A stretch of 64,000 nucleotides of DNA from Phytohabitans houttuyneae. GTDB taxonomy: Bacteria; Actinomycetota; Actinomycetes; Mycobacteriales; Micromonosporaceae. A program made the translations under genes and the position numbers. Of this stretch, positions 11,189 to 58,248 are shown piece by piece. The DNA lies in the NCBI RefSeq assembly GCF_011764425.1, contig NZ_BLPF01000002.1, positions 434,997 through 498,996 of the forward strand, in the 5' to 3' direction. Position 1 is the stretch's first letter, and each line of letters opens with the position of its first letter. The notes beneath the pieces are model-generated. The model had not been told where the DNA came from, made no database searches, and worked only from the letters and a program-made list of their open reading frames with translations.

Positions 11189-11380
11189 GTGCCACCTCCG
11201 GCTGTTTTCCTGCGATGGCCCAAGACTCGCCAAGGACGGCGCGGGCAACATCGTCCAGCCGCAGACACTGGCGCGTACTGCGATCGCGGTACGCCCCCTA
11301 CGGGTACGACGCGGGTTTCTATTCGGGTACCGAGAATGTGTTATGGATGGCCGGCTTCGAAAGTCGCCTTGCCTCGGCTG

Positions 11381-34287: not shown

Positions 34288-36633
<2,346 letters not shown>

Positions 36634-43604: not shown

Positions 43605-44873
43605 ATGAAGCAGCGAGCACTGTGGTCGGTGGTCCTGGTCGCGGGGCTGGCCTTGGCCGGCTGCGGTAGCGCCTCAGACTCGGACTCCTCGCCTGGTGGC
43701 TCGGACGGCAAGCTCGTCGTCTGGGACTGGAAGTCGGGCGACGTGTCCGCGGCCTCATACATCGAGAAGGCGAAGGCCGACTTCGCCAAGAAGCATTCCG
43801 GCGTGACGGTCGAGTTCGTCGCGCAGCCCTTCGAGCAGTACTACACGCTGCTCGGTGCGGCGATCCAGGCCGGCAAGGGGCCGGACGTCATGCTCTTCAA
43901 CGGCGGCGGGCAGATCCGCGACAGGGTGGACGCGCTCCTGCCGCTTGACGAGTACATCGGCGATGACAAGCAACGGCTGGCCGGGTGGGAAGCCTTCACC
44001 AAGGACAGCAAGACGTACGCCGGCCCGGTGACCCTGCAAGGCCACCCGATCTACTACAACAAGTCGCTCTACCAGAAGGCGGGACTGGATCCCGAGCGCC
44101 CGGCCACCACCTGGAGCGAGTTCGTCGCCAACTGCGAGAAGATCGCGAAGGCGACCAAGGCCAAGTGCTTCGCACAGGGAAACAAGGAAGGCATCGGCAT
44201 CCAGTTCTTCCTGTCCGGCCTCGGCTCGGGAATCCTCTCGCCGCAGGAGTACGACGACTGGATCGCCGGCAAGCGCAACTGGAACTCACCGGCCGTCAAA
44301 CGCGTCTTCGCGCTCTGGAAAGAGGTAAACGACAAGGGTTTGAACAACGAAGGCGCCAACTCGACGGCGATGTTCAACGACGCGTTCGCGGTGTTCCAGT
44401 CCAGCAAGGCCGCACACGTCATCGGGCTGATGTCCGACATCGGGCACTGGAAGGACTTCGCTGAGTTTCTTGAGGCCGGCAACGTCGGCGTCATGAAGGC
44501 GCCGGTCGTGACGGCCGGGACCACGCCGAGCCTTCCCTACGACGGCGGCATCGGCTACGCGGTCGCGAAGTGGACCAAGGATCCGAAGGTCGCCGCCGAC
44601 CTCGTGCGGTCGCTCACGTCCACGGAGGCACTGAAGGCGTTCTACGCCGACGCGGGCGCCATCGCCTCCGACAAGACGATCGACGTGTCGACAGCCGGAC
44701 CGGCCGTCTCCACCATCGTGTCCGATCTCGACGGTGGAAAGCCGGCTCTGCACGTGGCCCTTTCCTCCAAGACGATCGAACTGATGGGCCGCCTGTCCCA
44801 GCAGCTGCTCAGCGGATCGGTCACCGTCGACAAGGCGGTGGAACAGCTGGCCGCGTCCGACCAGGCGGGTTGA
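43605..44873 (+). CDS. sugar-binding lipoprotein of an ABC importer
   Basis: The protein has 422 residues. The lipobox is LALAGCGS. The family 1 solute-binding body includes KLVVWDWKSGD, VEFVAQPFEQYYTLLGAAIQ, PDVMLFNGGGQIRD and a carboxy-terminal lobe with DGGIGYAVAKWTKDP. It captures a sugar or oligosaccharide outside the cell for the two permeases that follow. It is the first gene of a seven-gene operon ending at 53537, under the FadR-type operator. Confidence 0.93.
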   Translation: MKQRALWSVVLVAGLALAGCGSASDSDSSPGGSDGKLVVWDWKSGDVSAASYIEKAKADFAKKHSGVTVEFVAQPFEQYYTLLGAAIQAGKGPDVMLFNGGGQIRDRVDALLPLDEYIGDDKQRLAGWEAFTKDSKTYAGPVTLQGHPIYYNKSLYQKAGLDPERPATTWSEFVANCEKIAKATKAKCFAQGNKEGIGIQFFLSGLGSGILSPQEYDDWIAGKRNWNSPAVKRVFALWKEVNDKGLNNEGANSTAMFNDAFAVFQSSKAAHVIGLMSDIGHWKDFAEFLEAGNVGVMKAPVVTAGTTPSLPYDGGIGYAVAKWTKDPKVAADLVRSLTSTEALKAFYADAGAIASDKTIDVSTAGPAVSTIVSDLDGGKPALHVALSSKTIELMGRLSQQLLSGSVTVDKAVEQLAASDQAG

Positions 44874-44877
44874 TCCA

Positions 44878-45846
44878 GTGCCGGTAAGCAGTTCATCGTC
44901 GGTCCGCCTCGCCGAGGCGGGGCGGACCGACGGGACGGCGTCGGCGGCGCGGGCGGCGACGAGCCGCCGCCGGCCCCGGGACGGCCGGCGCGCCGAACGC
45001 CTGGCTCCCTACGTCCTCGTCGCTCCGGCCCTACTCATCATCGTGGTGTTGCGGCTGTGGCCGCTGGCCCTGGGCGTCAACTTCTCCTTCACCGGCGACG
45101 GCGACCGCAACGGCACGAGCGTCGGGTTCGACAACTACTCCGAACTCCTGCAGGACCCGCTGTTTCGCACCGCGCTGCGCAACGTCGGACTGCTGGTCCT
45201 GCTGCTACCCATCGCCGTCGCGATCCCCGGGCTGCTCGCCACGTTCATCTACCTGCGCGTGCCCGGACACCGCGTCTTCCGGAGCGTCTACTTCTTCCCG
45301 GCCGTGCTGTCCCCGGTCATCGTCGGCGCCATCTTCAACCTGCTGCTCGCCTTCGACGGCCCGCTGAACACGGTGCTCGGCGGCGTCGGCATCCAGCCCG
45401 TCGACTGGCTGGGCAACCCGGATGTGGCCATCTTCGCCGTCGTCGGCGTGCACATCTGGGCGACGTTCGGCATGGCGCTGGTGGTGTTCCTTGCCGGGTT
45501 CGCGACGCTGGACGCCGCGCTGATGGACGCCGCCCGCGTCGACGGCGCCTCGCTGCCGCAGACGATCTGGCACGTCATCATCCCCGGCCTGTCCCGCACG
45601 ATCCAGTTCGTCTTCGTCACCACGATGATCGGGATGCTCACCTCGATGTTCGGGCTGCTCTACATCATGACCAGCGGTGGACCGGAAGGGTCGACCTACC
45701 TGCCGGAGTACTACATCTGGTTCCAGCAGGGACATATGAACCGCCCCGCGCTGGCCTCGGCCGCGTCCACCGCGCTGTTCGTGATCATGCTGGTGGTGGG
45801 TCTGCTGCAGGTCAGCCTGCTGCGCCGCGCGGGAAGGGAAACCTGA
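44878..45846 (+). CDS. carbohydrate ABC transporter permease (MalF-type)
   Basis: The protein has 322 residues from a GTG five bases after the binding-protein stop. A basic, Ala/Arg-rich N-terminus precedes six hydrophobic segments. The EAA motif reads ALMDAARVDGASLPQTIWHVIIP. It ends by overlapping the next permease start (TGATG). It works with the adjacent lipoprotein and second permease; the ATPase must come from elsewhere in the genome. Confidence 0.93.
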   Translation: MPVSSSSSVRLAEAGRTDGTASAARAATSRRRPRDGRRAERLAPYVLVAPALLIIVVLRLWPLALGVNFSFTGDGDRNGTSVGFDNYSELLQDPLFRTALRNVGLLVLLLPIAVAIPGLLATFIYLRVPGHRVFRSVYFFPAVLSPVIVGAIFNLLLAFDGPLNTVLGGVGIQPVDWLGNPDVAIFAVVGVHIWATFGMALVVFLAGFATLDAALMDAARVDGASLPQTIWHVIIPGLSRTIQFVFVTTMIGMLTSMFGLLYIMTSGGPEGSTYLPEYYIWFQQGHMNRPALASAASTALFVIMLVVGLLQVSLLRRAGRET

Positions 45847-46673
45847 TGCCCCGCGCACGCCTGGGCCGGTGGCTCGTCGCGCTGCCGATGGCGGTCCTCG
45901 CCCTGGCCACGATCTACCCGCTGATGTTCACCGCCAACGTCGCCATGAAGACCCGCCGCGAGTACATCCTCGACCGGTTCTCCCTGACGAGCACGCTGCA
46001 CTGGGAAAACCTCACCACGGCGTGGAACAGCGTCGGCATGGCGCGGTACTTCCTCAACTCGGTCATCGTGGTCACCTGCGCCGTGGTCCTGCTGCTGCTC
46101 ATCGGCTCCATGGCCGGGTTCGCGCTGAGCCAGCTGCGCTTCCGCGGCTCGTCGGCGCTGTTTCTGGTGTGCCTCGCGGCGCTGTTCATCCCGTTCCAAG
46201 TGATCATGGTGCCGCTGGCCAGGATCATGGCGGACATCGGCCTGATCGACACCTACCCCGGGCTGATCCTCGCCTACGTCGCGCAGTTCCTGCCGTTCAC
46301 CGTCTTCTTGATGACCACCTACTACCGGGCGGTGCCGGCGGAGATCATCGACGCGGCCCGGATCGACGGAAACTCGCCGTACGGCGTCTACCGGCGCATC
46401 ATGCTGCCGATCGGTGCGCCCGCGCTGCTCTCGGTGGGCATCCTCAACGCGCTGTTCTGCTGGAACGACGTGCTCATCTCGCTGCTCATGATGCCGTCGG
46501 CCGACCATCGCACGCTCATGGTTGGCGTGACCTCACTGCGGGGCCAGTACTCCGACGACATCCCCACCTTCGCGGCCGGCGTCCTCATCGCCGCGGTGCC
46601 GGTCCTGGTGACCTACCTGTTCCTGCAGCGACAGATCGCCGACGGTGTGACCGCCGGCTCGACGAAGGGCTGA
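45846..46673 (+). CDS. carbohydrate ABC transporter permease (MalG-type)
   Basis: The protein has 275 residues starting MPRARLGRWLVALPMAVLAL, with six membrane segments and the EAA loop EIIDAARIDGNSPYGVYRRIMLP. Its start overlaps the preceding stop by one base, and the enolase gene begins one base after its own stop, so the three are tightly coupled. Confidence 0.93.
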   Translation: MPRARLGRWLVALPMAVLALATIYPLMFTANVAMKTRREYILDRFSLTSTLHWENLTTAWNSVGMARYFLNSVIVVTCAVVLLLLIGSMAGFALSQLRFRGSSALFLVCLAALFIPFQVIMVPLARIMADIGLIDTYPGLILAYVAQFLPFTVFLMTTYYRAVPAEIIDAARIDGNSPYGVYRRIMLPIGAPALLSVGILNALFCWNDVLISLLMMPSADHRTLMVGVTSLRGQYSDDIPTFAAGVLIAAVPVLVTYLFLQRQIADGVTAGSTKG

Positions 46674-46674
46674 C

Positions 46675-47898
46675 ATGCGGATCACCGGATACCGGACCCT
46701 GAGGACGGCACAGCGGTGGGGGCGACCCGTCGGTGACGCCAACGGTGTCTTCCCCGATGGCGTCATGCCGGTGCCGATCATCCTCGTCGACACCGACGAA
46801 GGGATCACCGGAGTCGGCATGGGGCCGCACGTGGAAGCCGACGCCGTCTTCGCCGCCATCGACGGTCAGGACCCGCGCGGGGTGGTGGCGCTTTACGACC
46901 GCATGCTGCGGCACACGTTCAAGGCCGGCCACGCCGGCGTCGTGTTCGGCACGATCGGTGCCTTCGACACGGCGCTGTGGGACATCAAGGCGCAGGCGGC
47001 GGGCGAACCGTTGTGGCGGCTGCTCGGCGGCAGCGACCGCACCGTGCACGCCTACGCGTCCGGCCTGGACATCGCCCTCACCGACGACGAGCTCGTCGCC
47101 GCCTACGAGGCGTACGGGCAGCTGGGGCTGCGCGCGGCCAAGCTCAAAGGTGGCCTGGACATCGAGCGCGACCGCCACCGGCTGACGCTCGTGCGGGACG
47201 TGCTGACCCACGCGGCGCGCGGTATGCGCCCCGGACTGATGCTGGACGCGAACGAGTCCTGGACCCGCAAACAGGCCGTCCGCCACGTCTGCGAACTCGA
47301 GCGCACGATCGACCTGACCTGGATCGAGGAGCCGGTGCGGCGGTGGGACGCCGACGGCCTCGCCGCGGTCAGCCGCGGCGTACGCGCGTCGGTCGCCAGC
47401 GGGGAAAACCTGACCGGACTCGAACAGTTCGCCCCGCTGCTCGCCGCCGGCGGCCTGGACATCGTCCAGACGGCGGCGGTCTGGGGAGTCACCCACTTCC
47501 TGCGCGTCGCCGCCCTTGCCCACGCCCACGACCTGCCCGTCAGTCCGATCGGCAACACGCCCGTCGCGCTCCTGCACGCCGCGACGTCCGTGCCCAACCA
47601 CCTCGCCAGCGAACTGCAGGATCTGCGCGCCCCCGTCGGGCTGCACCTGGACCTGCACGTGGAGGACGGCGCGTTCATCCTCGGAGACTCGCCGGGGCTC
47701 GGCATCCGGGTCGACGAAGGCGTGATAGCCGCCGCGCAGGACGGCCGGTCGACGGCGCCCACCGGACCCCACGTGCGACCTGAGCAGGCCGGCCGGCGGC
47801 TGCTCGCAGTCAGCGAGCGCGACGGGCGTCAGCCGCAGCCGCATCCCGTCGACGTCCGTCAGGCACCGGCGGCCGCCGAGACATCGCAGGTCGCCTAG
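46675..47898 (+). CDS. enolase-superfamily enzyme (mandelate racemase/muconate lactonising type), probable sugar-acid dehydratase or epimerase
   Basis: The protein has 407 residues. The barrel carries the KxK base Lys156/Lys158 (AAKLKGG) and metal ligands Asp191 (LDANES), Glu218 or Glu219 (IEEPVRRWD) and Glu244 (SGEN). In most acid-sugar dehydratases a His follows at the end of strand 7 (SPHG-like); here that position reads SPIGNTP, so the usual catalytic His seems to be missing. This favours a one-base reaction or a divergent specificity. The C-terminal 40 residues are low-complexity. Its place directly behind the importer suggests it acts on the imported sugar or its acid. Confidence 0.82.
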   Translation: MRITGYRTLRTAQRWGRPVGDANGVFPDGVMPVPIILVDTDEGITGVGMGPHVEADAVFAAIDGQDPRGVVALYDRMLRHTFKAGHAGVVFGTIGAFDTALWDIKAQAAGEPLWRLLGGSDRTVHAYASGLDIALTDDELVAAYEAYGQLGLRAAKLKGGLDIERDRHRLTLVRDVLTHAARGMRPGLMLDANESWTRKQAVRHVCELERTIDLTWIEEPVRRWDADGLAAVSRGVRASVASGENLTGLEQFAPLLAAGGLDIVQTAAVWGVTHFLRVAALAHAHDLPVSPIGNTPVALLHAATSVPNHLASELQDLRAPVGLHLDLHVEDGAFILGDSPGLGIRVDEGVIAAAQDGRSTAPTGPHVRPEQAGRRLLAVSERDGRQPQPHPVDVRQAPAAAETSQVA

Positions 47899-47956
47899 GT
47901 CTGAGACGCCCGGCTGTACCGACCCGGATCGGCCCCACAGGAAGGAAACCCTCGCT

Positions 47957-50896
47957 GTGCGCCCCTGGCTGGCCCATCAACGAACAGTCGCCGTGGCCGC
48001 GGCCCTGACCGTGACTGGAGTATTCGGCATGCCCACACCGGCTGCGCAGGCCGCACCGCCAGAACTTGTCATCGTGGTCGCACCACCGGGTACCGGCAAC
48101 GCCAGCGACGACGGCCCTGGTACCTTCGGCCGGCCGCTGGCGTCGTTGCAGGAAGCGCAGCGCCGCGCCCGTCAGGCCGCCGCCAAGGCAAACCGTGACG
48201 TCGTCGTACACCTGCGCGGCGGAACGTACCGGCTGGATGCGCCCCTGCGGTTCGACGCCGCGGACTCCGGCCGCGACGGGCGCACCGTCACCTGGCGCGG
48301 AGCCCGGGACACCACCGTCCTCAGTGGAGCACAGCCGGTCACCGGCTGGCAGCTCGACGACGAGGCGACCGGGATCTACAAGGCGGAGGTCGGCACCGGC
48401 TTCGACACCCGGCAGCTCTACGTCGACGGGGTACCGGCACAGCGGGCCCGGCTCCGCCTGGCACGTACCGACATCACGCTCAACGCCGAGGGCTTCACGC
48501 TCAACAACCCGGATCTCGCCTACCTCGCCACGCTGCCGGACCAGCGGCGCATCGACCTGCAGGCGATGCTGTCGTTCACCAACCGGTTCGCACCGGTGCA
48601 GAGCATCACCGGCAACACCGTGCTCATGCAGCAACCCGCCTGGGACAATAACACCTACGGCTATGACACCATACAGTCTCCACTGCGGACTCCGACGTTC
48701 TTCCTGTTGAACGCCAAGCGGTTTCTGGACGAGCCGGGGGAGTGGTACCTGGACACCACCGCCGGAACTCTTTACTACAAACCGCTACCCGGCCAGGACA
48801 TCCAGCGCGCCCGGGTCGAGCTGCCGAGGCTGGAGTCCCTGCTCCAGGTCGGCGGCACCTACGACGCCCCCGCCCGCAACCTCCGCTTCGAAAATCTGAC
48901 CTTCACCGGCACCACGTGGCTGCACCCCAGCACACCGAACGGCTACGCCAACCAGCAGACCGGCGTGTTCATCACCGGAGTGCAGCCCGACCGGCCCGCC
49001 GACGCGTTCACCTCGTGCGCGTTCGGGTGCCGCGGCTTCGAGGGCTCCCGCAACCAGTGGGCGCAGGCCGCGGCCGCCGTGCAGGTCTCGGCGGCGGACG
49101 GCATCACGTTCCTGGACAGCGCATTCGTCAACCTCGGATCGGTCGGGCTCGGTATCGGCAACGACGCGAACGCCCACGCCACCGGCGTCGGGCTCGGCGC
49201 CCGAAACATCTCGGTCGTCGGCAGCACCTTCACGGCGAGCGCCGGCGGCGGCATCGTGGTCGGCGGTGTCCGCCCGGACGCGCACCATCCGTCCGACCCC
49301 CGGATGGTCAACAGCGACATCCGGATCAGCAACAACCGCGTCTTCGCCACCGCACTCGAGTACCTGGACCAGGACGCCATCTTTGCCAGCTACGTCGCGC
49401 GGCTGAGCATCGAGCACAACTACGTCTCCGACATGCCGTACACCGGAATCGGGCTCGGCTACGGCTGGGGTGCCAACGACCCGGGCGGCAGCCCAGAGTA
49501 CCTCAACCGCGGCCTGTACGACTTCCAGCCGATCTACCAGACCCCGACGACCGCCAGCGACGTGCGCGTGGTCGGCAACCACGTACGCAACGTCGTGCAG
49601 ACAATGTTCGACGCCGGCTGCATCTACACGCTCTCGGCCATGCCACGTAGCACGATCGAGGAGAACTTCTGCGAAAACAGCGGCCAGCTCGGCCTCTACT
49701 TCGACGAAGGCTCCCGATACCTGACCGCCAGCCGCAACGTCTTCATCAGCACGGCCGGGCAGTGGGCGCACGCCAACAACCAGAACGGCAACCACACCGG
49801 CGACCTGACCCTGACCGAGAACTACGCCACCAACCCGGCCATCACGGGCATCGTCAACGGCAGCCGCGGCAACGTCACCCGCGCCAACCTCACGATCACC
49901 GCGGGGAACCCGCCGATCGAGGCCAGCCGCGTCATCTACAACGCCGGACCGGCAGGTGCCTACCGTGACCCGGTCGACCCCAACCGCCCACCGGTCGGGG
50001 CGGTCCTGGCGGCCGATCCGGCCAGCCTGAGCGCCGGCGGCACCACCACGGTCACCGCCACCGTCCACAATGTCAGCGACAAGGCGGTGTCCGGACTCAC
50101 CGCGGCGATCACGGTGCCGGACGGCTGGCAGGCCGTGCGCGCCGGACCTGCCCTGCGGCCACGGCTCGCCCCGGACACCGCGCAGACCGCCTCCTGGCGC
50201 GTCACCGCGCCCGCCTCGGTCACCACCCCGGTCGCCCGGGCGGCCGTAACCGCCGTGCTGGAACTCCGGGCCGGCCAGACACCGTACAGCGTCACCAGGA
50301 CGCTGAACGTCACCGCCGTCAACCCGCTGACCTCCCTGCCCGGCTACGGGTCGGTGCCGAGCCAGTTCGGCGAGGCGGGCGGCAGCTACGCCATCCTGAC
50401 CTCCGGCACCGACATCTGGCAGGACGGCGGCGGCTCGTTCGACGAGTACGGCACCATCTACCGCGACGGCGCGGTGACCGCCTCCTCGACGGTGACCGCG
50501 CGGGTCACCGCGATGGACAACACGAATCCGTGGGCCAAGGCCGGTGTGGCCATCCGCAACGACCTCACCGGCGCCGGGGTGTCGCCCGGCTACGCGGTGG
50601 TGGTCGTGACACCGGGCAACGGGGTCGCCTTCCAGTGGGACGCCAACGGCAACGGCTACCTCGACTCCTTCAGCGGTGCCAGCGGCATCAGGGCACCCGC
50701 CTGGGTACGGTTGGTCCGCTCCGGCGACACGGTCAGCGGCTACTACTCCACCGACGGCGACACCTGGACCAAGGTAGGCCCCACCGTCACCCTGGCCGGC
50801 ATCTCCGCGACGCAGGACGCCGGACTGATCGCCACCTCGCACGCCGCAGGGGTGACCGGACAGTTCAGCTTCAGCGACTTCACCGTCACCCCCTAA
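47957..50896 (+). CDS. secreted right-handed beta-helix protein with C-terminal beta-sandwich domains
   Basis: The protein has 979 residues from a GTG with GGAAGGAAA ten bases upstream. The signal peptide ends near AAQAAPP (residue 33). The N-terminal DVVVHLRGGTYRLDAPLRF and the beta-helix (EHNYVSDMPYTGIGLGYGWG, CENSGQLGLYFDEGSRY) parallel the protein at 40295. Instead of CBM13 it ends in an NPCBM-associated/NEW3-like domain (about 680-770) and a DUF1349/laminin-G-like domain (about 790-979, NPWAKAGVAIRND). It is encoded within the importer operon, so its product is probably the sugar imported. The family (GH141/GH120-like or lyase) is not resolved. Confidence 0.82.
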   Translation: MRPWLAHQRTVAVAAALTVTGVFGMPTPAAQAAPPELVIVVAPPGTGNASDDGPGTFGRPLASLQEAQRRARQAAAKANRDVVVHLRGGTYRLDAPLRFDAADSGRDGRTVTWRGARDTTVLSGAQPVTGWQLDDEATGIYKAEVGTGFDTRQLYVDGVPAQRARLRLARTDITLNAEGFTLNNPDLAYLATLPDQRRIDLQAMLSFTNRFAPVQSITGNTVLMQQPAWDNNTYGYDTIQSPLRTPTFFLLNAKRFLDEPGEWYLDTTAGTLYYKPLPGQDIQRARVELPRLESLLQVGGTYDAPARNLRFENLTFTGTTWLHPSTPNGYANQQTGVFITGVQPDRPADAFTSCAFGCRGFEGSRNQWAQAAAAVQVSAADGITFLDSAFVNLGSVGLGIGNDANAHATGVGLGARNISVVGSTFTASAGGGIVVGGVRPDAHHPSDPRMVNSDIRISNNRVFATALEYLDQDAIFASYVARLSIEHNYVSDMPYTGIGLGYGWGANDPGGSPEYLNRGLYDFQPIYQTPTTASDVRVVGNHVRNVVQTMFDAGCIYTLSAMPRSTIEENFCENSGQLGLYFDEGSRYLTASRNVFISTAGQWAHANNQNGNHTGDLTLTENYATNPAITGIVNGSRGNVTRANLTITAGNPPIEASRVIYNAGPAGAYRDPVDPNRPPVGAVLAADPASLSAGGTTTVTATVHNVSDKAVSGLTAAITVPDGWQAVRAGPALRPRLAPDTAQTASWRVTAPASVTTPVARAAVTAVLELRAGQTPYSVTRTLNVTAVNPLTSLPGYGSVPSQFGEAGGSYAILTSGTDIWQDGGGSFDEYGTIYRDGAVTASSTVTARVTAMDNTNPWAKAGVAIRNDLTGAGVSPGYAVVVVTPGNGVAFQWDANGNGYLDSFSGASGIRAPAWVRLVRSGDTVSGYYSTDGDTWTKVGPTVTLAGISATQDAGLIATSHAAGVTGQFSFSDFTVTP

Positions 50897-50913
50897 CTCT
50901 GGACGGAGGATCG

Positions 50914-51960
50914 ATGGAGGCGGTCGTCTACCGCGGCGCCCGTACGCTCCGGATCGAGAGCCGCGACGCCGACCCACCCGGACCCGGCCAGGTGGCGATC
51001 GAGGTCGCCTACACCGGCATCTGCGGTACCGACCTGCACATCTACCGCGGCGACCTGGACGCGAGGGTAGGGACGGAGGCGGTGATCGGCCACGAGATGT
51101 CCGGCCGTGTCGCCGCGGTAGGCGAGGGCGTCGCCGGCTGGAGCGCCGGGCGGGCGGTCACCGTGATGCCGACCCGTTCGTGCACCCGGTGCGCGGCCTG
51201 CCTTCGCGGCCACTACCACATCTGCCACGCCCTGGACTTCCTCGGCATCGACTCGCCCGGCGCCATGCAGTCGACCTGGAACGTCCCCGCGAACCTCGTG
51301 TTTCCCCTTCCGGCATCGCTGCCGTTGAAGCACGCCGCGCTCGTCGAGCCGGTCGCGGTGGCCGTACACGACGTGCGCCGGGCCCGCGTCGGCACGGGGG
51401 AGCGTGTCGTGGTGGTCGGCGGCGGGCCGGTGGGGCTGCTCATCGCCATGCTCTGCAGCGCCCGTGCGGCGCGGGTGTTGCTCGTCGAGCCCAACCCGTT
51501 CCGCCGCGCGGTCGCCGAGCAGGCCGGGATCGAGGCCGTCGACCCGCAGGCCACCGACGTGGTGGCGCTGGTCAACAGGCGCACCGCCACCGCCGGCGCG
51601 GACGTCGCCTTCGAGGTCTCCGGCTCCGCCGGCGGTTTGGAGACCGCGGTCGACGTCCTGACCACGCGCGGCCGCCTGGTCATGGTGGCCATCCATCCGC
51701 AGCCCCGCCCGGTCGACCTGCACAGGTTCTTCTGGCGCGAGCTGGAGCTGTTCGGGGCCCGCCTGTACCGCCGTGACGACGTCGCCGAGGCCATCCGGCT
51801 GATCGAGACCGGCGCGATCCCCGCCGAGAGGTTGATCTCCCAGACGCTGCCGGTCCAGGATGTGGACGCGGCCTTCGCGGCCCTTGAGAAGGGCGGCGAC
51901 GTCATGAAGGTCCTACTCGACTGGCACGGCGGCGCCCGGGACGCAGGGGTGGGCCGATGA
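50914..51960 (+). CDS. zinc-dependent medium-chain dehydrogenase (sorbitol/L-threonine dehydrogenase type)
   Basis: The protein has 348 residues; GGAGGATCG precedes the ATG. Catalytic zinc ligands are Cys in GICGTDLH, the GHE motif and Glu later in VEPVAVAVHD. The structural zinc loop has four Cys (CTRCAACLRGHYHIC). The Rossmann motif is GGGPVGLL. Such enzymes oxidise polyols or sugar derivatives with NAD(P). Its stop overlaps the sigma-factor ATG by four bases. Together with the enolase-family enzyme it suggests a short oxidative route for the imported sugar. Confidence 0.88.
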   Translation: MEAVVYRGARTLRIESRDADPPGPGQVAIEVAYTGICGTDLHIYRGDLDARVGTEAVIGHEMSGRVAAVGEGVAGWSAGRAVTVMPTRSCTRCAACLRGHYHICHALDFLGIDSPGAMQSTWNVPANLVFPLPASLPLKHAALVEPVAVAVHDVRRARVGTGERVVVVGGGPVGLLIAMLCSARAARVLLVEPNPFRRAVAEQAGIEAVDPQATDVVALVNRRTATAGADVAFEVSGSAGGLETAVDVLTTRGRLVMVAIHPQPRPVDLHRFFWRELELFGARLYRRDDVAEAIRLIETGAIPAERLISQTLPVQDVDAAFAALEKGGDVMKVLLDWHGGARDAGVGR

Positions 51961-53537
51961 TGCGAGCCGGCATGACCGAAGAGACCAGCCTCGTCGCCGC
52001 CGCCCAGGCCGGCGACCGGCAGGCACTGGACAGCCTCGTCGGCGCCTACCTGCCATTGGTGTACGCCATCGTGCGCAGAGCACTGGACGGACGTCCCGAC
52101 GCCGACGACGTCGTGCAGGAGACGATGCTGCGGGTCCTGCGGGAGCTGCGGACGCTGCGCAGTCCGGAGAGCTTCCGGCCCTGGCTGGTAACGATCGCCA
52201 CCCGCCAGGTCAGCACACACCTGCACCGGCGGCAGGCCGAGGCCGATCGCTCCGCCGCCCTCGACGAGGTCACCGACCCGCCGGCCGCCGACGCCGAAGA
52301 CTGGGCCGTGCTCCGCGCGGAGCTGTCCGGGCACCGGCGTCAGGTGACGCGCGCCAGCCGCTGGCTGGACTCGGACGACCGCGCGCTGCTGTCGCTGTGG
52401 TGGCTGGAGACCGCGGGCGAACTGACCAGGACGGAGCTCGCGGCGGTACTGGGTGCGAGCGTGGCGCACACCGGCGTGCGGGTCCAGCGGATGCGCCACC
52501 AGCTGGAGCTGAGCCGTTCGCTTGTCGCCGCCCTGGACGCGCGGCCCCGGTGCGCCCAGCTGGACGCCGCGTTGCAGGAGTGGGACGGCGTGCCGAGTCC
52601 GCTGTGGCGCAAGCGCATCACTCGGCACACCCGCGACTGTCCGATGTGTACCCGCGCGGCCGCCGGCCAGCTTCCCCTCGAGCGGCTGATCGTCGGCCTG
52701 GCGCTGCTGCCCGTCCCGCTGGCGCTGTCGGCCGCGGTGCTGGGCAAGGCCGCACTGGCCGGAGCGACCGGTGGCGCGGGCACGGCGATGGCGGGCGCGA
52801 CCGGCACGGGAGCGGTCGCGGCCGGCGTCAAGGCCGGACTCCTCAGCCAGCTGGCGCAGGCGGTGAGCGCGCACCCGGTCGCGGCGACCGTTGCCGCGGG
52901 CGCGCTCGTCGCCGGAGCGACGGTCACCACGGTCACCTGGTCCACGCCGACCCCACCGGGCCGGCCGGTGGTCGCGGCGCCGACAACGGCACCCGCGGCG
53001 CGGCCGGTGGGCGCGGCGCCGGCGCTGGCCCCGGCGTCGGCCGCACCGCACGCGCGGCGCCCGAGCCCGACGGTCGTCAACCCGTCGACCACGGCCCCGT
53101 TCGCGTTGGGGCTGGCGTCGTTGGAGTCCATCAACCAGGTCGGATTCGTGATAACGACGAGGGACGACCTCGGTGTGCTCGAGTTCGTGGACGCCGGTGC
53201 CGACGCGCCGTCGCGGGAGCGGGCGACGTTCGAGGTGGTGTCCGGTCTGGCAAACCCGAGATGCGTCTCGTTCCGGGTCAAGGACGGCCGGTACCTGCGC
53301 CACGCCTCCTGGCGCCTGAGGCTGGATCCGGACGAGGGCACCGACCTGTTCCGCGGCGACGCGACGTTCTGCGTCCGCGAGGGCGCGGCCCCGGACTCGG
53401 TCTGGCTGGAGTCCGGCAACTATCCGGGTTGGTTCCTGCGCCATCGAAACCACGAGCTGTGGGTGGACCAGTCCGACGGCACCCCGCTGTTCGGCGCCGA
53501 CGCCTCCTTCCGGCCGCGGGCGGCACTTGCCCGGTAG
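51957..53537 (+). CDS. membrane-tethered ECF sigma factor with zinc-binding anti-sigma-like motif and extracytoplasmic AbfB domain
   Basis: The protein has 526 residues; starts at 51957, 51960 or 51972 are possible. Sigma-2 lies at 15-93 (DADDVVQETMLRVLREL, RPWLVTIATRQ) and sigma-4 at about 135-192 (LLSLWWLETAGELTRTELAAVLG). Residues 199-231 hold Cys199 and the exact zinc-binding anti-sigma pattern His224-x3-Cys228-x2-Cys231 (RHTRDCPMC). Hydrophobic segments follow at about 244-262 and 305-327, then a Pro/Ala-rich spacer to 380. Residues 385-520 form an AbfB/CBM42 arabinofuranose-binding trefoil (RYLRHASWRLRLDPDEGTDLF, ESGNYPGWFLRHRNHELWVD). It is the last gene of the importer operon. Inference: ligand binding outside releases or activates the cytoplasmic sigma part. 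Confidence 0.85.
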   Translation: MMRAGMTEETSLVAAAQAGDRQALDSLVGAYLPLVYAIVRRALDGRPDADDVVQETMLRVLRELRTLRSPESFRPWLVTIATRQVSTHLHRRQAEADRSAALDEVTDPPAADAEDWAVLRAELSGHRRQVTRASRWLDSDDRALLSLWWLETAGELTRTELAAVLGASVAHTGVRVQRMRHQLELSRSLVAALDARPRCAQLDAALQEWDGVPSPLWRKRITRHTRDCPMCTRAAAGQLPLERLIVGLALLPVPLALSAAVLGKAALAGATGGAGTAMAGATGTGAVAAGVKAGLLSQLAQAVSAHPVAATVAAGALVAGATVTTVTWSTPTPPGRPVVAAPTTAPAARPVGAAPALAPASAAPHARRPSPTVVNPSTTAPFALGLASLESINQVGFVITTRDDLGVLEFVDAGADAPSRERATFEVVSGLANPRCVSFRVKDGRYLRHASWRLRLDPDEGTDLFRGDATFCVREGAAPDSVWLESGNYPGWFLRHRNHELWVDQSDGTPLFGADASFRPRAALAR

Positions 53538-53707
53538 CGGGCTCGCGGCCGTCACGACCAACGGACACCGGTCGTCATAACAGAAACTTCGTGTGACCTT
53601 TCGCGCCCTGGCCTCGAATTGCGGCAGAGAAATCTGTTACGGATCGCGGCTGCAGAAGGTCCGCCCATCAGGAGAGCACGTATCGACGTTTCCCTCTTGA
53701 ACGCGTC

Positions 53708-53792: not shown

Positions 53793-55247
<1,455 letters not shown>

Positions 55248-55501: not shown

Positions 55502-56881
55502 GTGCAGTACGTATCGTCCGGTCGTGCCGCGGGCAGGCGGGGCATCGCCTGGCTCACCGCGCTGCTGTGCCTCGTGGTGCTGGTGCCCGGGGTGGCACGA
55601 GCCGACAATCCGATCGTCCAGACCATCTACACCGCTGACCCGGCACCTCTGGTGCACAACGGCCGCGTCTACCTCTACACCGGACACGACGAGGACGGCT
55701 CGACGTGGTTCACGATGCGCGAGTGGCGCGTCTGGTCCTCCGCGGACATGGTCAACTGGACCGACCACGGCTCGCCGATGAGCCTGTCCACGTTCAGCTG
55801 GGCCAGCGCCGACGCGTGGGCCGGGCAGGCGATCCAGCGCAACGGCAAGTTCTACTGGTACGTGCCGGTCAAGAACCGCTCGACCGGCCGGATGGCCATC
55901 GGCGTCGGTGTTTCGGACAGCCCGACCGGGCCCTTCCGCGACGCTCTGGGGCGCCCGCTCGTGGAAAACGGCGAGATCGACCCGTCGGTCTTCATCGACG
56001 ACAACGGCCAGGCGTACCTCTACTGGGGCAACCCCAACCTGTGGTACGTGCGGCTGAACGCCGACATGATCTCGTACTCCGGCGGTGCGACGCAGATCCC
56101 GCTGACCGCGGCCGGATTCGGCGCCCGTAGCGGAAACACCAGCCGTCCCACGCTGTACGAAGAAGGCCCCTGGGTCTACAAGCGCAACGGCCTGTACTAC
56201 AACGTCTTCGCGGCCGAATGCTGCTCGGAGTTCATCGGTTACTCGACCGCCACCGGGCCGACCGGACCGTGGACCTACCGCGGGACCGTCATGCCACGGC
56301 AGGGCAGCAGCTTCACCAACCACGCCGGGATCATCGACTTCAATGGCGGCTCGTACTTCTTCTACCACAACGGCGCCTTGCCGGGCGGCGGTGGCTTCAC
56401 CCGCTCCGTGGCGGTGGAGAAGTTCAGCTACAACGCCAACGGCACCATACCGACCATCAACATGACCACGTCCGGAGCTCCTCAAGTCGGCACGCTGAAC
56501 CCCTTCGGCCGGCAGGAAGCCGAGACGATCGCCTGGGAAAGCGGCGTGGAGACCGAGCCGTCCGGCGACGGTGGAATGAACGTCGGCTGGATCGAAAACG
56601 GCGACTGGATCAAGGTCAAGGGCGTCGCGTTCGGCGGCGGTGCCAGGTCCTTCACCGCTCGGGTCGCCTCGGGCACCAGCGGCGGCCGCATCGAGCTGCG
56701 CCTCGGCGGCACCAGCGGCACCCTCGTCGGCACCTGCACCGTGCCGGGCACCGGCGGCTGGCAGACCTGGACCACCGTCAGCTGCCCGGTCAGCGGCGCC
56801 ACCGGCACGCAGGACCTCTACCTGCGCTTCGCCGGCGGCAGTGGCTACCTGCTCAACGTCAACTGGTGGCAGTTCACCTGA
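55502..56881 (+). CDS. secreted GH43 (arabinofuranosidase/xylosidase) with CBM6
   Basis: The protein has 459 residues from a GTG preceded by AGGAGGGAACA. The signal peptide ends near GVARA (residue 34). The five-bladed propeller carries the catalytic base Asp46 (YTADPAPLVHNG), the pKa-modulating Asp in NGEIDPSVFIDD and the acid Glu in TLYEEGPWVYKRNG. CBM6 spans about 335-459 (RQEAETIAWESGVETEP, NVGWIENGDWIKVKG, LYLRFAGGSGYLLNVNWW) and would bind xylan chains. It resembles the GH43 subgroups acting as arabinoxylan arabinofuranohydrolases. First of four same-strand genes with short gaps (53, 32 and 140 bases), possibly one transcript. Confidence 0.92.
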   Translation: MQYVSSGRAAGRRGIAWLTALLCLVVLVPGVARADNPIVQTIYTADPAPLVHNGRVYLYTGHDEDGSTWFTMREWRVWSSADMVNWTDHGSPMSLSTFSWASADAWAGQAIQRNGKFYWYVPVKNRSTGRMAIGVGVSDSPTGPFRDALGRPLVENGEIDPSVFIDDNGQAYLYWGNPNLWYVRLNADMISYSGGATQIPLTAAGFGARSGNTSRPTLYEEGPWVYKRNGLYYNVFAAECCSEFIGYSTATGPTGPWTYRGTVMPRQGSSFTNHAGIIDFNGGSYFFYHNGALPGGGGFTRSVAVEKFSYNANGTIPTINMTTSGAPQVGTLNPFGRQEAETIAWESGVETEPSGDGGMNVGWIENGDWIKVKGVAFGGGARSFTARVASGTSGGRIELRLGGTSGTLVGTCTVPGTGGWQTWTTVSCPVSGATGTQDLYLRFAGGSGYLLNVNWWQFT

Positions 56882-56934
56882 CCCCCTGAACCCCACCACC
56901 GACAGCACGACACGGACGACATAGGAGTTTTGTG

Positions 56935-58248
56935 ATGTCAAGGCATCGCCCCTTCTTCGGGGCCGTCGCGGCCGCGTCATTGCTGGCGCTCGTCGCGGCC
57001 GGCGTGACGGTGAGCGGCGCTCTCAACGGTGCCGCTTCCGCCGCGGACGTGGGCGTCGCCGCCGCGACCGCCGGATGCGGTAGGGCGCCGACCCTGCAAA
57101 CAGGTACGCACACCATCCAGAGCAACGGAAAGAGCCGCAGCTTCATCCTGCGGCTCCCGGCCAACTACAACAACAGCAACCCGTACCGGCTCATCTTCGC
57201 CTTCCACTGGCGGGGCGGTACCGCCAACGAGATCGAGTCGGGCGGGACGAGCGGCCGGGCGTGGTCGTACTACGGCCAGCTCGAGCAGTCGAACGGCACG
57301 GCCATCCTGGTAGCGCCGCAGGGCCTGGGCAACGGCTGGGCCAACTCCGGCGGTGAGGACGTCACGTTCGTCGACGACATGCTCCGCCGGATCGAAGCGG
57401 ACCTGTGTGTCGACACGACCCAGCGCTTCGCCACGGGCTTCAGCTGGGGCGGTGGCATGAGCTACGCGCTCGCGTGCGCCCGGCCGACCGTCTTCCGCGC
57501 GGTCGCGGTCATCGCCGGCGCGCAGATCAGCGGTTGTAGCGGCGGCACCCAGCCGATCGCCTACTTCGGACTGCACGGCATCACCGACAACGTCCTGAAC
57601 ATCTCCCAGGGCCGTGCCCTGCGCGACACCTTCGTGCGCAACAACGGCTGTACGCAGCAGAGCCCGCGCGAGCCGGCGGGCGGCAGCCGCACGCACATCA
57701 CCACCGCCTACACCGGCTGCCGGGCGGGCTACCCCGTGCAGTGGGCCGCGTTCGACAACGGGCACATGCCGGGGCCGGTCGACGGGACCTACACCGAAAG
57801 CGGCGTGACGACCTGGACCAAGGGGGAGATCTGGAGGTTCTTCGCCCAGTTCCAGAACACCACGCCGAACCCGACCACGCCTCCGCCGACCACGACGCCC
57901 CCGCCTTCCTCGCCGCCACCCTCCTCGCCTCCGCCGTCCTCGCCCCCGCCGGGCGGTGCCGGCTGCTCGGCTTCGGTGTCGCTCAACTCCTGGACGGGCG
58001 GCTTCGTAGCCACGGTGCGGGTGACCGCCGGCACGAACGGGACCAACGGCTGGACCGTCAGCCTCACCCTGCCGAGCGGTGCGAGCATCACCAACACCTG
58101 GAGTGCGTCGGCCAGCGGGAGCACCGGCAGCGTGCGGTTCACGAACGTGAGCTACAACGGCCGGCTCACCCCGGGCCAGGTCACGGAGTTCGGATTCCAG
58201 GGCAGCGGCAGCGGATCCGGCATGACGCCCACCTGCACCGCCACCTGA
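56935..58248 (+). CDS. secreted feruloyl/acetyl esterase (CE1-like) with C-terminal CBM2
   Basis: The protein has 437 residues, with AGGAG seven bases before the ATG (a GTG one codon earlier is possible). The signal peptide ends near GAASA. The catalytic domain begins GCGRAPTLQTGTHTI, with oxyanion region FAFHWRGG, nucleophile Ser170 in TGFSWGGG, Asp in HGITDNVL and His in FDNGHMPGP. A Pro/Ser linker leads to CBM2 (GCSASVSLNSWTGGF to PTCTAT). It is the paralogue of 31923 and of the truncated gene at 63308. It removes acyl or feruloyl groups that block xylanases. Confidence 0.88.
   Translation: MSRHRPFFGAVAAASLLALVAAGVTVSGALNGAASAADVGVAAATAGCGRAPTLQTGTHTIQSNGKSRSFILRLPANYNNSNPYRLIFAFHWRGGTANEIESGGTSGRAWSYYGQLEQSNGTAILVAPQGLGNGWANSGGEDVTFVDDMLRRIEADLCVDTTQRFATGFSWGGGMSYALACARPTVFRAVAVIAGAQISGCSGGTQPIAYFGLHGITDNVLNISQGRALRDTFVRNNGCTQQSPREPAGGSRTHITTAYTGCRAGYPVQWAAFDNGHMPGPVDGTYTESGVTTWTKGEIWRFFAQFQNTTPNPTTPPPTTTPPPSSPPPSSPPPSSPPPGGAGCSASVSLNSWTGGFVATVRVTAGTNGTNGWTVSLTLPSGASITNTWSASASGSTGSVRFTNVSYNGRLTPGQVTEFGFQGSGSGSGMTPTCTAT

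What the first reader, a model, noticed from the sequence alone, without database searches (positions are those of the whole stretch)
51957..53537. One-protein transmembrane sigma factor sensing arabinose polymers
One chain combines an ECF sigma factor, an exact H-x3-C-x2-C zinc-binding anti-sigma motif with an additional upstream Cys, membrane segments and an external AbfB (arabinofuranose-binding) domain. Sigma factors with fused anti-sigma-like or membrane extensions are known in actinobacteria, but a CBM42-type sensor at the end of a sugar-import operon suggests a complete carbohydrate-sensing transcription switch in one polypeptide.
Basis: partly seen in the sequence, partly recalled or inferred. 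Interest (0 to 1): 0.88.

Follow-up and report, generated by a model that had tools for sequence, protein, structure and literature searches.

The report
Membrane-tethered sigma factor sensing arabinoxylan
A soil-type actinobacterium encodes one protein that joins a gene-switching sigma factor, its own zinc-type brake, a membrane anchor and an outside arm of a kind that grips arabinose-decorated plant polymers; related proteins carry other arms, and a matching DNA start signal sits before nearby plant-cell-wall-degrading genes.

Summary
Confirmed: 51957-53537 (+) encodes 526 aa: ECF sigma (23-184), Cys199-x24-His-x3-Cys-x2-Cys zinc motif, hydrophobic region, Pro-rich linker, AbfB/CBM42 trefoil (389-519, E 1e-38). 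This architecture is published for ECF52/ECF53, so it is not a new kind. New here: (1) the outside arm is exchangeable: three paralogues in the same genome share the inside half (43-49% identity) but end in GH128, an unnamed domain or a PL9-like helix; of 67 family proteins 18 end in AbfB, 17 CAP, 10 GH128, 7 unnamed, 4 PL9-like, following the sigma tree. (2) Arm fits neighbourhood: AbfB beside GH10/GH62/GH43/GH54, PL9-like beside pectinases. (3) An ECF-type promoter, RWAWSYGTTAY-N15-VRRGTC, precedes these genes; a matrix trained outside the window finds it between this sigma gene and the adjacent GH10 xylanase. The 11.3-Mb genome has four exact copies (reversed control 0), leading to GH141-like, GH10, ThuA-GSDH/GH54 and GH95 genes. 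Sister classes have a related promoter with another -10 before their own genes. Best reading: a one-polypeptide counterpart of clostridial SigI/RsgI. Probably one membrane crossing. Co-occurrence beyond the training genomes is weak; binding, zinc and proteolysis are untested. New variant of a known kind.

The parts
51957..53537 (+). whole gene: ECF sigma - zinc anti-sigma-type domain - TM - Pro-rich linker - AbfB (526 aa)
52035..52235 (+). sigma region 2 (residues 27-93)
   Evidence: Pfam Sigma70_r2 E 1.3e-16
52365..52538 (+). divergent sigma region 4-like helices (residues ~137-194; family signature LWWLETAGEL)
   Evidence: TIGR02937 match runs to residue 184; no Pfam Sigma70_r4 hit; helices 139-152, 158-165, 169-194 in the model
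52551..52649 (+). zinc anti-sigma-like motif C199-x24-H224-x3-C228-x2-C231
52677..52742 (+). first hydrophobic stretch (residues 241-262), family motif ERLLAGLALLPVP; probably not a membrane crossing
52878..52946 (+). single predicted transmembrane helix (residues ~308-330)
   Evidence: low confidence in the model
52947..53108 (+). Pro/Ala/Thr-rich linker (residues ~331-384)
   Evidence: pLDDT under 50 over 267-379
53121..53513 (+). AbfB / CBM42 beta-trefoil (residues 389-519); H449, D468, C436, C472 invariant in 18 of 18 AbfB family members
53628..53663 (+). predicted promoter of the AbfB-class sigma, AGAAATCTGTTACG-N14-AAGGTCCG, GTTA 205 nt before the GH10 ATG
   Evidence: matrix trained outside the window, score 21.4 (ten shuffled windows: 0.1 per window at 18 or more); exact pattern match
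53841..55247 (+). GH10 xylanase with ricin-type lectin domain, predicted target (ORF opens at GTG 53832)
   Evidence: Pfam Glyco_hydro_10 E 4e-106
11332..11367 (+). second predicted promoter of the same type
11506..14178 (+). secreted-type GH141-like beta-helix protein with ricin lectin domain, predicted target
   Evidence: Ricin_B_lectin E 3e-31, Beta_helix E 5e-8, GH141_M E 7.5e-7
43605..51960 (+). same-strand genes ahead of the sigma gene: SBP, two permeases, MR_MLE enzyme, GH141-like helix protein, Zn-dehydrogenase
   Evidence: second permease by eye
55502..58248 (+). further cell-wall genes: GH43-CBM6 and a CBM2 protein (feruloyl-esterase-like by eye)

Best explanation
The gene encodes a one-polypeptide transmembrane sensor-regulator. 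The N-terminal ECF sigma is held inactive by its own zinc anti-sigma-like domain and by tethering to the membrane; a single helix carries a Pro-rich stalk and an AbfB/CBM42 trefoil to the outside, where it binds arabinofuranosyl side chains of arabinoxylan or arabinan. Binding leads to intramembrane proteolysis that frees the sigma part, which then drives RWAWSYGTTAY-N15-VRRGTC promoters ahead of secreted arabinoxylan-degrading enzymes (here the adjacent GH10, a GH141-like protein, a ThuA-GSDH/GH54 unit and a GH95 gene), and in some relatives ahead of its own gene. It belongs to an actinobacterial family in which the inside half is kept and the outside arm is exchanged together with the regulon. 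Shown by computation: domains, zinc-ligand pattern, fold of the AbfB part, exchange of arms, gene neighbourhood, promoter motif. Inferred: zinc and sugar binding, topology, proteolysis, direct control of the promoters.
For: Domains and fold. Zinc ligands: 66 of 67 and 65 of 66. H449, D468, C436, C472 kept in 18 of 18, aligned to the same residues of CBM42 in 1wd3. Topology: K/R before the second helix exceed those after it in 17 of 17 CAP, 7 of 7 X, 7 of 10 GH128 and 3 of 4 PL9 members. Exchange of arms. Neighbourhood: seed arabinoxylan genes within 10 kb in 14 of 20 AbfB loci against 0 of 38 others (biased seeds); GH10 9, GH62 7, GH43 7, GH54 3, GH11 2 among 105 neighbours by Pfam; Pectinesterase 3, Pectate_lyase_4 3, Pectate_lyase 1 among 43 neighbours of PL9-like members. 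Promoter; target domains.
Against: No biochemical data. AbfB members show no K/R bias of their own around the helix (7 pre>post, 6 pre<post, 5 ties of 18), so their topology is borrowed from sister classes. 6 of 20 AbfB loci have no seed arabinoxylan gene nearby. 5 of 12 AbfB-bearing genomes have no exact promoter match and 4 of 49 without the protein have one; leaving out the five genomes whose sites shaped the pattern, presence is 2 of 7 against 4 of 49, p 0.16. In named genomes the one new site (P. durhamensis) is near GH10 but wrongly oriented, and P. rishiriensis, A. subtropicus and S. prunicolor have no exact site. The two one-mismatch sites in the own genome precede no polysaccharide gene in the right orientation. 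4 of 21 matrix hits in AbfB loci have no gene behind them and 1 precedes a cold-shock gene. A LacI-type palindrome also lies before the GH10 gene. The window's sigma gene has no good site of its own upstream (best 8 of 11 over 1500 nt).
Confidence: 0.6

Rival explanations
1. Same architecture and regulon, but no proteolysis: ligand binding outside changes the zinc domain through the helix, and the sigma works while still at the membrane.
For: No protease or cleavage site was examined here; the SCO4117 paper cites a proposal that names both a proteolytic cascade and conformational change (passage).
Against: The fused membrane ECF with evidence (IutY) is cut by Prc and RseP, as reviewed in PMC8999054 (passage); clostridial RsgI is also cut (PMC12203970 passages).
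Confidence: 0.15
2. AbfB is a tether, not a sensor: it holds the cell on plant polymer, and another signal (envelope stress, starvation, redox at the Cys ligands) frees the sigma.
For: CBM42 domains are usually targeting modules (recalled); two relatives have a frame break in the linker that would cut the arm off; Cys-rich zinc domains can be redox-responsive (recalled).
Against: Arm type follows sigma clade (9 changes against a shuffled mean of 33.2) and goes with neighbouring substrate genes; PL9-like arms lack the catalytic Lys in 4 of 4.
Confidence: 0.13
3. Both hydrophobic stretches cross the membrane, so AbfB is inside and senses imported arabino-oligosaccharides.
For: The first stretch is strongly hydrophobic in this protein (0.2 on the scale, better than the second at 2.0); the gene ends a sugar-import operon.
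Against: First stretch broken in the model and not among the two best segments in the AbfB members L031 and L077; the Lys/Arg excess before the second helix in 17 of 17 CAP members would lie outside; an invariant Cys pair in AbfB suits the outside.
Confidence: 0.06
4. The promoter-like motif is read by another regulator, and the AbfB sigma merely sits in the same gene clusters.
For: Genome-level association outside the training genomes is weak (2 of 7 vs 4 of 49); a LacI-type operator lies nearby.
Against: Motif is bipartite, non-palindromic and oriented; divergent GH43 and GH27 genes in L091 each have their own oriented copy; it precedes AbfB-ECF genes themselves in L100, L026 and L089, and sister ECF genes carry the same GTTAT element with a different -10.
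Confidence: 0.14

Closest known systems
ECF52 sigma factors (SCO4117, Streptomyces coelicolor)
   Same: ECF sigma, zinc finger, TM, Pro-rich stretch and carbohydrate-binding domain in one chain; proteolytic release proposed (PMC5826349 and PMC8999054, passages seen)
   Different: SCO4117 carries smart00776 as its carbohydrate module and affects antibiotics and development; here AbfB/CBM42, a plant-polymer neighbourhood and another promoter (theirs: CSGYN-17-SRHA)
ECF53 sigma factors (actinobacteria)
   Same: fused zinc anti-sigma and one to two TM helices; some ECF52/53 members are said to carry glycosyl hydrolase or carbohydrate-binding domains, not validated (PMC10766802, PMC8999054, passages seen). 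The GH128-fused paralogues found here fit that description
   Different: no AbfB member, promoter or regulon in the passages seen; the group's own models could not be run here
SigI/RsgI biomass sensing of Clostridium thermocellum
   Same: an array of membrane sensors (CBM3, CBM42 in RsgI5, PA14, GH10) paired with sigma factors; SigI6 and SigI3 matched to xylan and pectin genes (PMC4711584, PMC12203970, passages seen); the RsgI5 CBM42 is among the closest solved relatives of the AbfB part
   Different: two proteins, SigI and RsgI, of other families; here one polypeptide
IutY (ECF243, Pseudomonas putida)
   Same: sigma and membrane anti-sigma fused, released by proteolysis (PMC8999054 passage)
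   Different: iron-siderophore cell-surface signalling, no sugar-binding domain named there

Membership tests
ECF sigma factors | sigma region 2 | tested here: met
   Pfam Sigma70_r2 60.6 bits vs 24
ECF sigma factors | sigma region 4 helix-turn-helix | tested here: inconclusive
   TIGR02937 covers 23-184 above cut-off and helices are predicted, but no Pfam region 4 model matches
zinc anti-sigma (ZAS) domain | H-x3-C-x2-C plus an upstream His/Cys ligand about 25 residues before (spacing recalled) | tested here: met
   66 of 67 and 65 of 66; no Pfam zinc-finger hit in this protein; zinc itself not testable
AbfB / CBM42 | Pfam AbfB above cut-off and beta-trefoil fold | tested here: met
   132.9 bits vs 22.8; CBM42 chains 3kmv, 9fnk, 9nxi with target TM-score 0.84-0.86
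AbfB / CBM42 | arabinofuranose binding | not testable with these tools
   His and Asp of the second repeat kept in 18 of 18; their role is recalled, not tested
ECF52 | fused zinc finger, TM, Pro-rich extension and carbohydrate module | tested here: met
   against the description in PMC5826349; zinc finger by motif, not by Pfam model
ECF52 | smart00776-type carbohydrate module, as in SCO4117 | tested here: not met
   the only C-terminal Pfam match is AbfB
ECF53 | fused ZAS, one to two TM helices, long C-terminal extension | tested here: met
   against PMC8999054
ECF53 | match to the ECF53 group model | not testable with these tools
   group models and reference sequence not at hand; the two classification papers I asked for by DOI are not held
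SigI/RsgI | separate SigI sigma and RsgI anti-sigma with RsgI N-terminal domain | tested here: not met
   single ORF; no such domain among its Pfam matches

The most novel reading that the evidence does not exclude
Actinobacteria hold a plug-in array of one-polypeptide sigma sensors: one conserved inside half (sigma, zinc brake, helix) joined to exchangeable outside arms (AbfB, GH128, an inactivated PL9 pectate-lyase fold, CAP, an unnamed domain), each arm matched to a polymer, to genes for that polymer and to a clade-specific promoter: GYGTTAY-N15-VRRGTC for AbfB, TGTTATC-N15/16-SGTCTCC for several others. It would be a convergent, single-chain answer to clostridial SigI/RsgI.
Probability: 0.48. 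Interest if true: 0.82.

Novelty: new variant of a known kind. Interest (0 to 1): 0.67.

Why it matters
A 2024 review states that hydrolase- and CBM-bearing ECF52/53 proteins still lack experimental validation (PMC10766802, passage). This work supplies for one such class a likely ligand, a predicted promoter, four predicted target units in the same genome and a sister-class comparison, so signal and regulon can be tested with a handful of constructs. If right, it offers single-gene, exchangeable polysaccharide-to-transcription switches and a way for soil actinobacteria to tell one plant polymer from another.

Tried and rejected
Chance arrangement or mis-framed ORF: rejected; the parts recur in order in AbfB family members carrying nine genus codes (own included), plus Streptomyces prunicolor. 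Several membrane crossings: considered, disfavoured (see rivals). Unnamed C-terminal domain X (7 of 67): AlphaFold2 on one sequence gave mean pLDDT 40.8, so no fold search was made. ECF52 comparison by sequence: a search of one Streptomyces genome for a SCO4117 counterpart gave a different zinc-motif ECF (L150), not recognised by eye as SCO4117-like; left open. Promoter of pectinase genes beside PL9-like members: a regex scan of four loci gave no site. The first neighbourhood count used 11 seed proteins, every one taken from AbfB loci, a bias; the Pfam recount found 4 GH43 proteins among 66 neighbours of GH128 members that the seeds had missed, so '0 of 38' holds only for close relatives of the seeds at E 1e-20. 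The pectin theme is not exclusive: 2 Pectinesterase matches also occur among 52 neighbours of X members. The best single dyad (7 of 41 against 1 of 409, p 2e-7) does not survive correction for about half a million possible dyads; the claim rests on the later matrix, genome and held-out tests. One unclassified family member in G026 was checked late and has no AbfB match. Wider distribution searches (family, 300 and 100 genomes asked) failed on the server.
Full report
What is there. The ORF at 51957-53537 (+) encodes 526 aa. Pfam and NCBIfam find sigma region 2 (27-93), an ECF match over 23-184 and AbfB at 389-519. Between them lie C199-x24-H224-x3-C228-x2-C231, two hydrophobic stretches and a Pro/Ala/Thr-rich linker. 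The gene overlaps the stop of a Zn-dehydrogenase gene by 4 bases and ends a run of same-strand genes: SBP, two permeases, MR_MLE enzyme, GH141-like helix protein, dehydrogenase (the second permease by eye). No NCBIfam equivalog listed for the MR_MLE enzyme or the dehydrogenase reaches its cut-off, so the sugar or sugar acid handled is not named. Downstream come GH10 with a ricin domain, GH43-CBM6, a CBM2 protein and an Esterase_PHB-ricin protein.

Structure. AlphaFold2 on 24 sequences (mean pLDDT 75.0, pTM 0.37) gives mostly confident helices over 1-245 (low at 102-110) and a mostly confident trefoil over 385-522 (low at 452-459); 267-379 is below pLDDT 50, so the membrane helix is not modelled with confidence. 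Foldseek against the PDB puts arabinofuranosidase and CBM42 chains in ranks 1-19, including 9fnk, named as the anti-sigma-I factor RsgI5, then sigmaE-RseA and AlgU-MucA. AbfB residues aligned to CBM42 are kept: H449, D468, C436 and C472 in 18 of 18 AbfB members. That such His and Asp bind arabinofuranose in AkAbfB, and that the Cys pair is a disulphide, is recalled. The third repeat keeps its His less well and the first lacks the His-Asp pair, as seen in the alignment.

Membrane. One search scored segments with a home-made weighting of the Hessa scale (values recalled), so numbers are rough. In this protein the first stretch scores 0.2 and the second 2.0 (lower is more hydrophobic), which by itself favours two crossings. 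Against that: the first stretch carries the family motif ERLLAGLALLPVP right after the zinc motif and is broken in the model, and class means (unweighted) are 4.8-9.1 for the first against 0.8-2.1 for the second. More Lys/Arg stand before the second helix than after it in 17 of 17 CAP, 7 of 7 X, 7 of 10 GH128 and 3 of 4 PL9 members; the AbfB class shows no bias (7 against 6, 5 ties). Outside-AbfB with one crossing is therefore an inference, mainly from relatives.

A family with exchangeable arms. The window's genome (11.34 Mb, 5 contigs) holds three paralogues with 43-49% identity over the inside half and other C-termini: Glyco_hydro_cc/GH128 (E 3e-50), Pel9A-like helix (E 1e-12) and a domain without Pfam match. 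Sixty-seven family proteins were extracted (L050 and L066 are one gene). By C-terminal similarity: AbfB 18, CAP/YkwD-like 17 (one member scanned: TIGR02909 E 1e-34, below its cut-off), GH128 10, X 7, PL9-like 4, one GH71/99-like (L039, by eye, truncated contig) and one transglycosylase-like (L078, by eye); nine without a usable C-terminus (truncated, frame-broken or the double) were dropped. On a quick tree of the sigma and zinc part of the other 58, CAP (95*) and PL9 (99*) are each one group, 16 of 18 AbfB fall together (93) with L024 (S. prunicolor) and the long-branched L077 outside, and all labels need 9 changes against a shuffled mean of 33.2 (0 of 200 as low). GH128 member L027 sits beside the AbfB clade (97*), which suggests exchange of arms; near-copies inflate the clustering test. 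The PL9-like arm of L004 matches pectate lyase 1ru4 (E 1.6e-42); at the position of the catalytic Lys (role recalled) the four arms have His, Val, His and Thr: likely inactivated enzymes kept as binders. The GH128 arms keep both Glu motifs in 10 of 10.

Neighbourhood. With 11 seed proteins at tblastn E 1e-20 within 10 kb, arabinoxylan genes (GH10, GH43, GH62, GH51, two esterases) occur in 14 of 20 AbfB loci and in 0 of 11 GH128, 0 of 7 X, 0 of 4 PL9 and 0 of 16 CAP loci; Fisher against GH128+X+PL9 p 7e-7. Loci are not independent and all seeds come from AbfB loci. The Pfam recount: among 105 proteins within three genes of AbfB members (19 loci, 110 to under 1300 aa), GH10 9, GH62 7, GH43 7, GH27 5, GH54 3, GH11 2; among 43 within six genes of PL9-like members (4 loci), Pectinesterase 3, Pectate_lyase_4 3, Pectate_lyase 1 (a protein may match more than one family); among 66 within four genes of GH128 members (10 loci), GH43 4 and Glyco_hydro_cc 1, no clear theme; among 52 within five genes of X members (7 loci), Alginate_lyase 3, Pectinesterase 2. 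CAP neighbours were not scanned with Pfam. Only the first 25 families are listed per call, so rarer ones are unseen.

Promoter. Dyads upstream of 41 cell-wall genes in AbfB loci against 409 control upstreams gave GTTA-N19-GTCG first (7 against 1); in context this is an ECF-type -35/-10 pair. A matrix from eight sites outside the window (two of them from a same-genus genome) scores the window at 36.0 (11340) and 21.4 (53636); ten shuffled windows gave 0.1 hit per window at 18 or more. The 11340 site had been in the discovery set; the 53636 site had not. Leave-one-locus-out matrices (threshold 15) give 21 hits in the 20 AbfB loci (425 kb, window included) against 3 in one shuffle; 17 of 21 lie within 420 nt upstream of a gene in the right orientation: 13 before polysaccharide enzymes, 3 before the AbfB-ECF itself, 1 before a cold-shock gene; 4 have no gene or lie in a CDS. 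For the window GH10 I set the start by hand (53841), and the L088 GH95 gene is reached past a 100-aa called ORF. In P. rishiriensis L026, unused for training, sites precede the sigma gene, a divergent GH27 and a GH62. The 38 other loci (691 kb) give 7 hits against 1 in a shuffle; 6 precede their own ECF gene or its operon, with GTCTC or GATCTC in place of AGTCG.

Genome scale. RWAWSYGTTAY-N15-VRRGTC has four exact copies in the window's genome and two with one mismatch; the reversed pattern has none. The exact four lead to the GH141-like gene 11506, GH10, a ThuA-GSDH-PKD-CBM6 gene followed by GH54, and GH95 (domains; placement). The last two were not used to make the pattern. The two one-mismatch sites precede no such gene in the right orientation. 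In 61 related genomes, 7 of 12 with an AbfB-type protein (G004 counted though its copy is truncated before the arm) have 17 sites, 4 of 49 without have 4; reversed control 1. Fisher p 4e-4, but leaving out the five genomes that shaped the pattern 2 of 7 against 4 of 49, p 0.16. Of the eight sites in AbfB genomes not used for the pattern, one search places two before GH10 (G036; G021, there 575 nt or more), two before the ThuA gene (G000, G003), one before GH95 (G000), one before a secreted protein with a PA14-like start (G034), one before an FAD oxidoreductase (G029) and one at a contig end (G021); outside G000 these names are by eye. The four in genomes without the protein lie in or beside unrelated sequence. 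In 22 named genomes P. durhamensis has two sites (GH62, used in training; and one near GH10 in the wrong orientation), one Streptomyces has one without a gene behind it, 20 have none, among them the AbfB carriers P. rishiriensis, A. subtropicus and S. prunicolor. The sister pattern TGTTATC-N15/16-SGTCTCC has 7 sites in the 61 genomes, control 0; 4 of 7 sit directly before family members, 3 do not. Before the ECF genes themselves a 7+4 consensus scored 9 or more in 27 of 67 against 6.2 expected from simple shuffles; near-identical CAP strains inflate that count, and the window's own gene scored 8.

Mechanism. The simplest account is regulated release: zinc domain and tether silence the sigma, the AbfB arm samples polymer outside, and a protease frees the sigma to switch on enzymes for that polymer. 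Proteolysis is by analogy to IutY and to what authors propose for ECF52/53 (PMC8999054, passages; PMC5826349, passages). No protease was examined here.

Known and new. ECF52 and ECF53 already describe sigma, zinc finger, TM and carbohydrate module or hydrolase in one chain. Searches for an ECF with AbfB or CBM42 and for this family in the held open-access library showed no such report in their listings; one search listed 20 of 119 and 10 of 21, and subscription papers on the ECF classification were not read, so an AbfB member may be listed there. The closest functional parallel is SigI/RsgI of C. thermocellum (PMC4711584, PMC12203970, passages), where arms include CBM42, a pectin-binding PA14 pair and a GH10 of very low activity. 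Verdict: a new variant of a known kind, raised in interest by the matched arms, the clade-specific promoters and the short list of predicted targets. On re-checking, confidence was lowered slightly (0.62 to 0.60, novel case 0.50 to 0.48, interest 0.68 to 0.67) because all seeds proved to come from AbfB loci and the one-mismatch sites gave no support.

Noticed in passing
window 34288-36504 (-): A single protein joins a GH10 xylanase domain (E 1e-111) to a PETase-like hydrolase domain (PF12740, E 3e-87).
   Followed up: no
window 53794-53805: Perfect palindrome GTTAGCGCTAAC, LacI-operator-like, between the predicted sigma promoter and the GH10 start; suggests dual control.
   Followed up: no
L088 9110-10671 (G003) and L103 9544-11417 (G005): In two same-genus relatives (AbfB type and GH128 type) the reading frame changes in the linker, separating sigma-TM from the arm; PMC5826349 reports a stop in the Pro-rich region of the S. 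clavuligerus ECF52 protein. Sequencing error or a real on/off site: unexplained.
   Followed up: partly
L004, L059, L063, L086: PL9-like pectate lyase folds on sigma factors with the catalytic Lys position replaced (His, Val, His, Thr); pectinase genes among their neighbours: likely enzymes turned sensors.
   Followed up: partly
L003, L041, L055, L056, L057, L060, L062: An unnamed ~200-aa C-terminal domain on seven family sigma factors, no Pfam match in L003; alginate-lyase-like genes nearby, in L041 directly upstream; fold prediction failed.
   Followed up: partly
G000:C3:193058-193636 (L006): An AbfB-like protein with a hydrophobic N-terminal segment but no sigma domain (about 275 aa) in the same genome.
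   Followed up: no
window 49005-49102: ARAGORN reports a tRNA-Ser inside the GH141-like coding sequence; probably a false positive.
   Followed up: no
L124 6094-8960: The GH95 gene behind one predicted promoter seems to change frame near its end: the catalytic-domain match stops at 327 of 408 and an ORF goes on in another frame.
   Followed up: no
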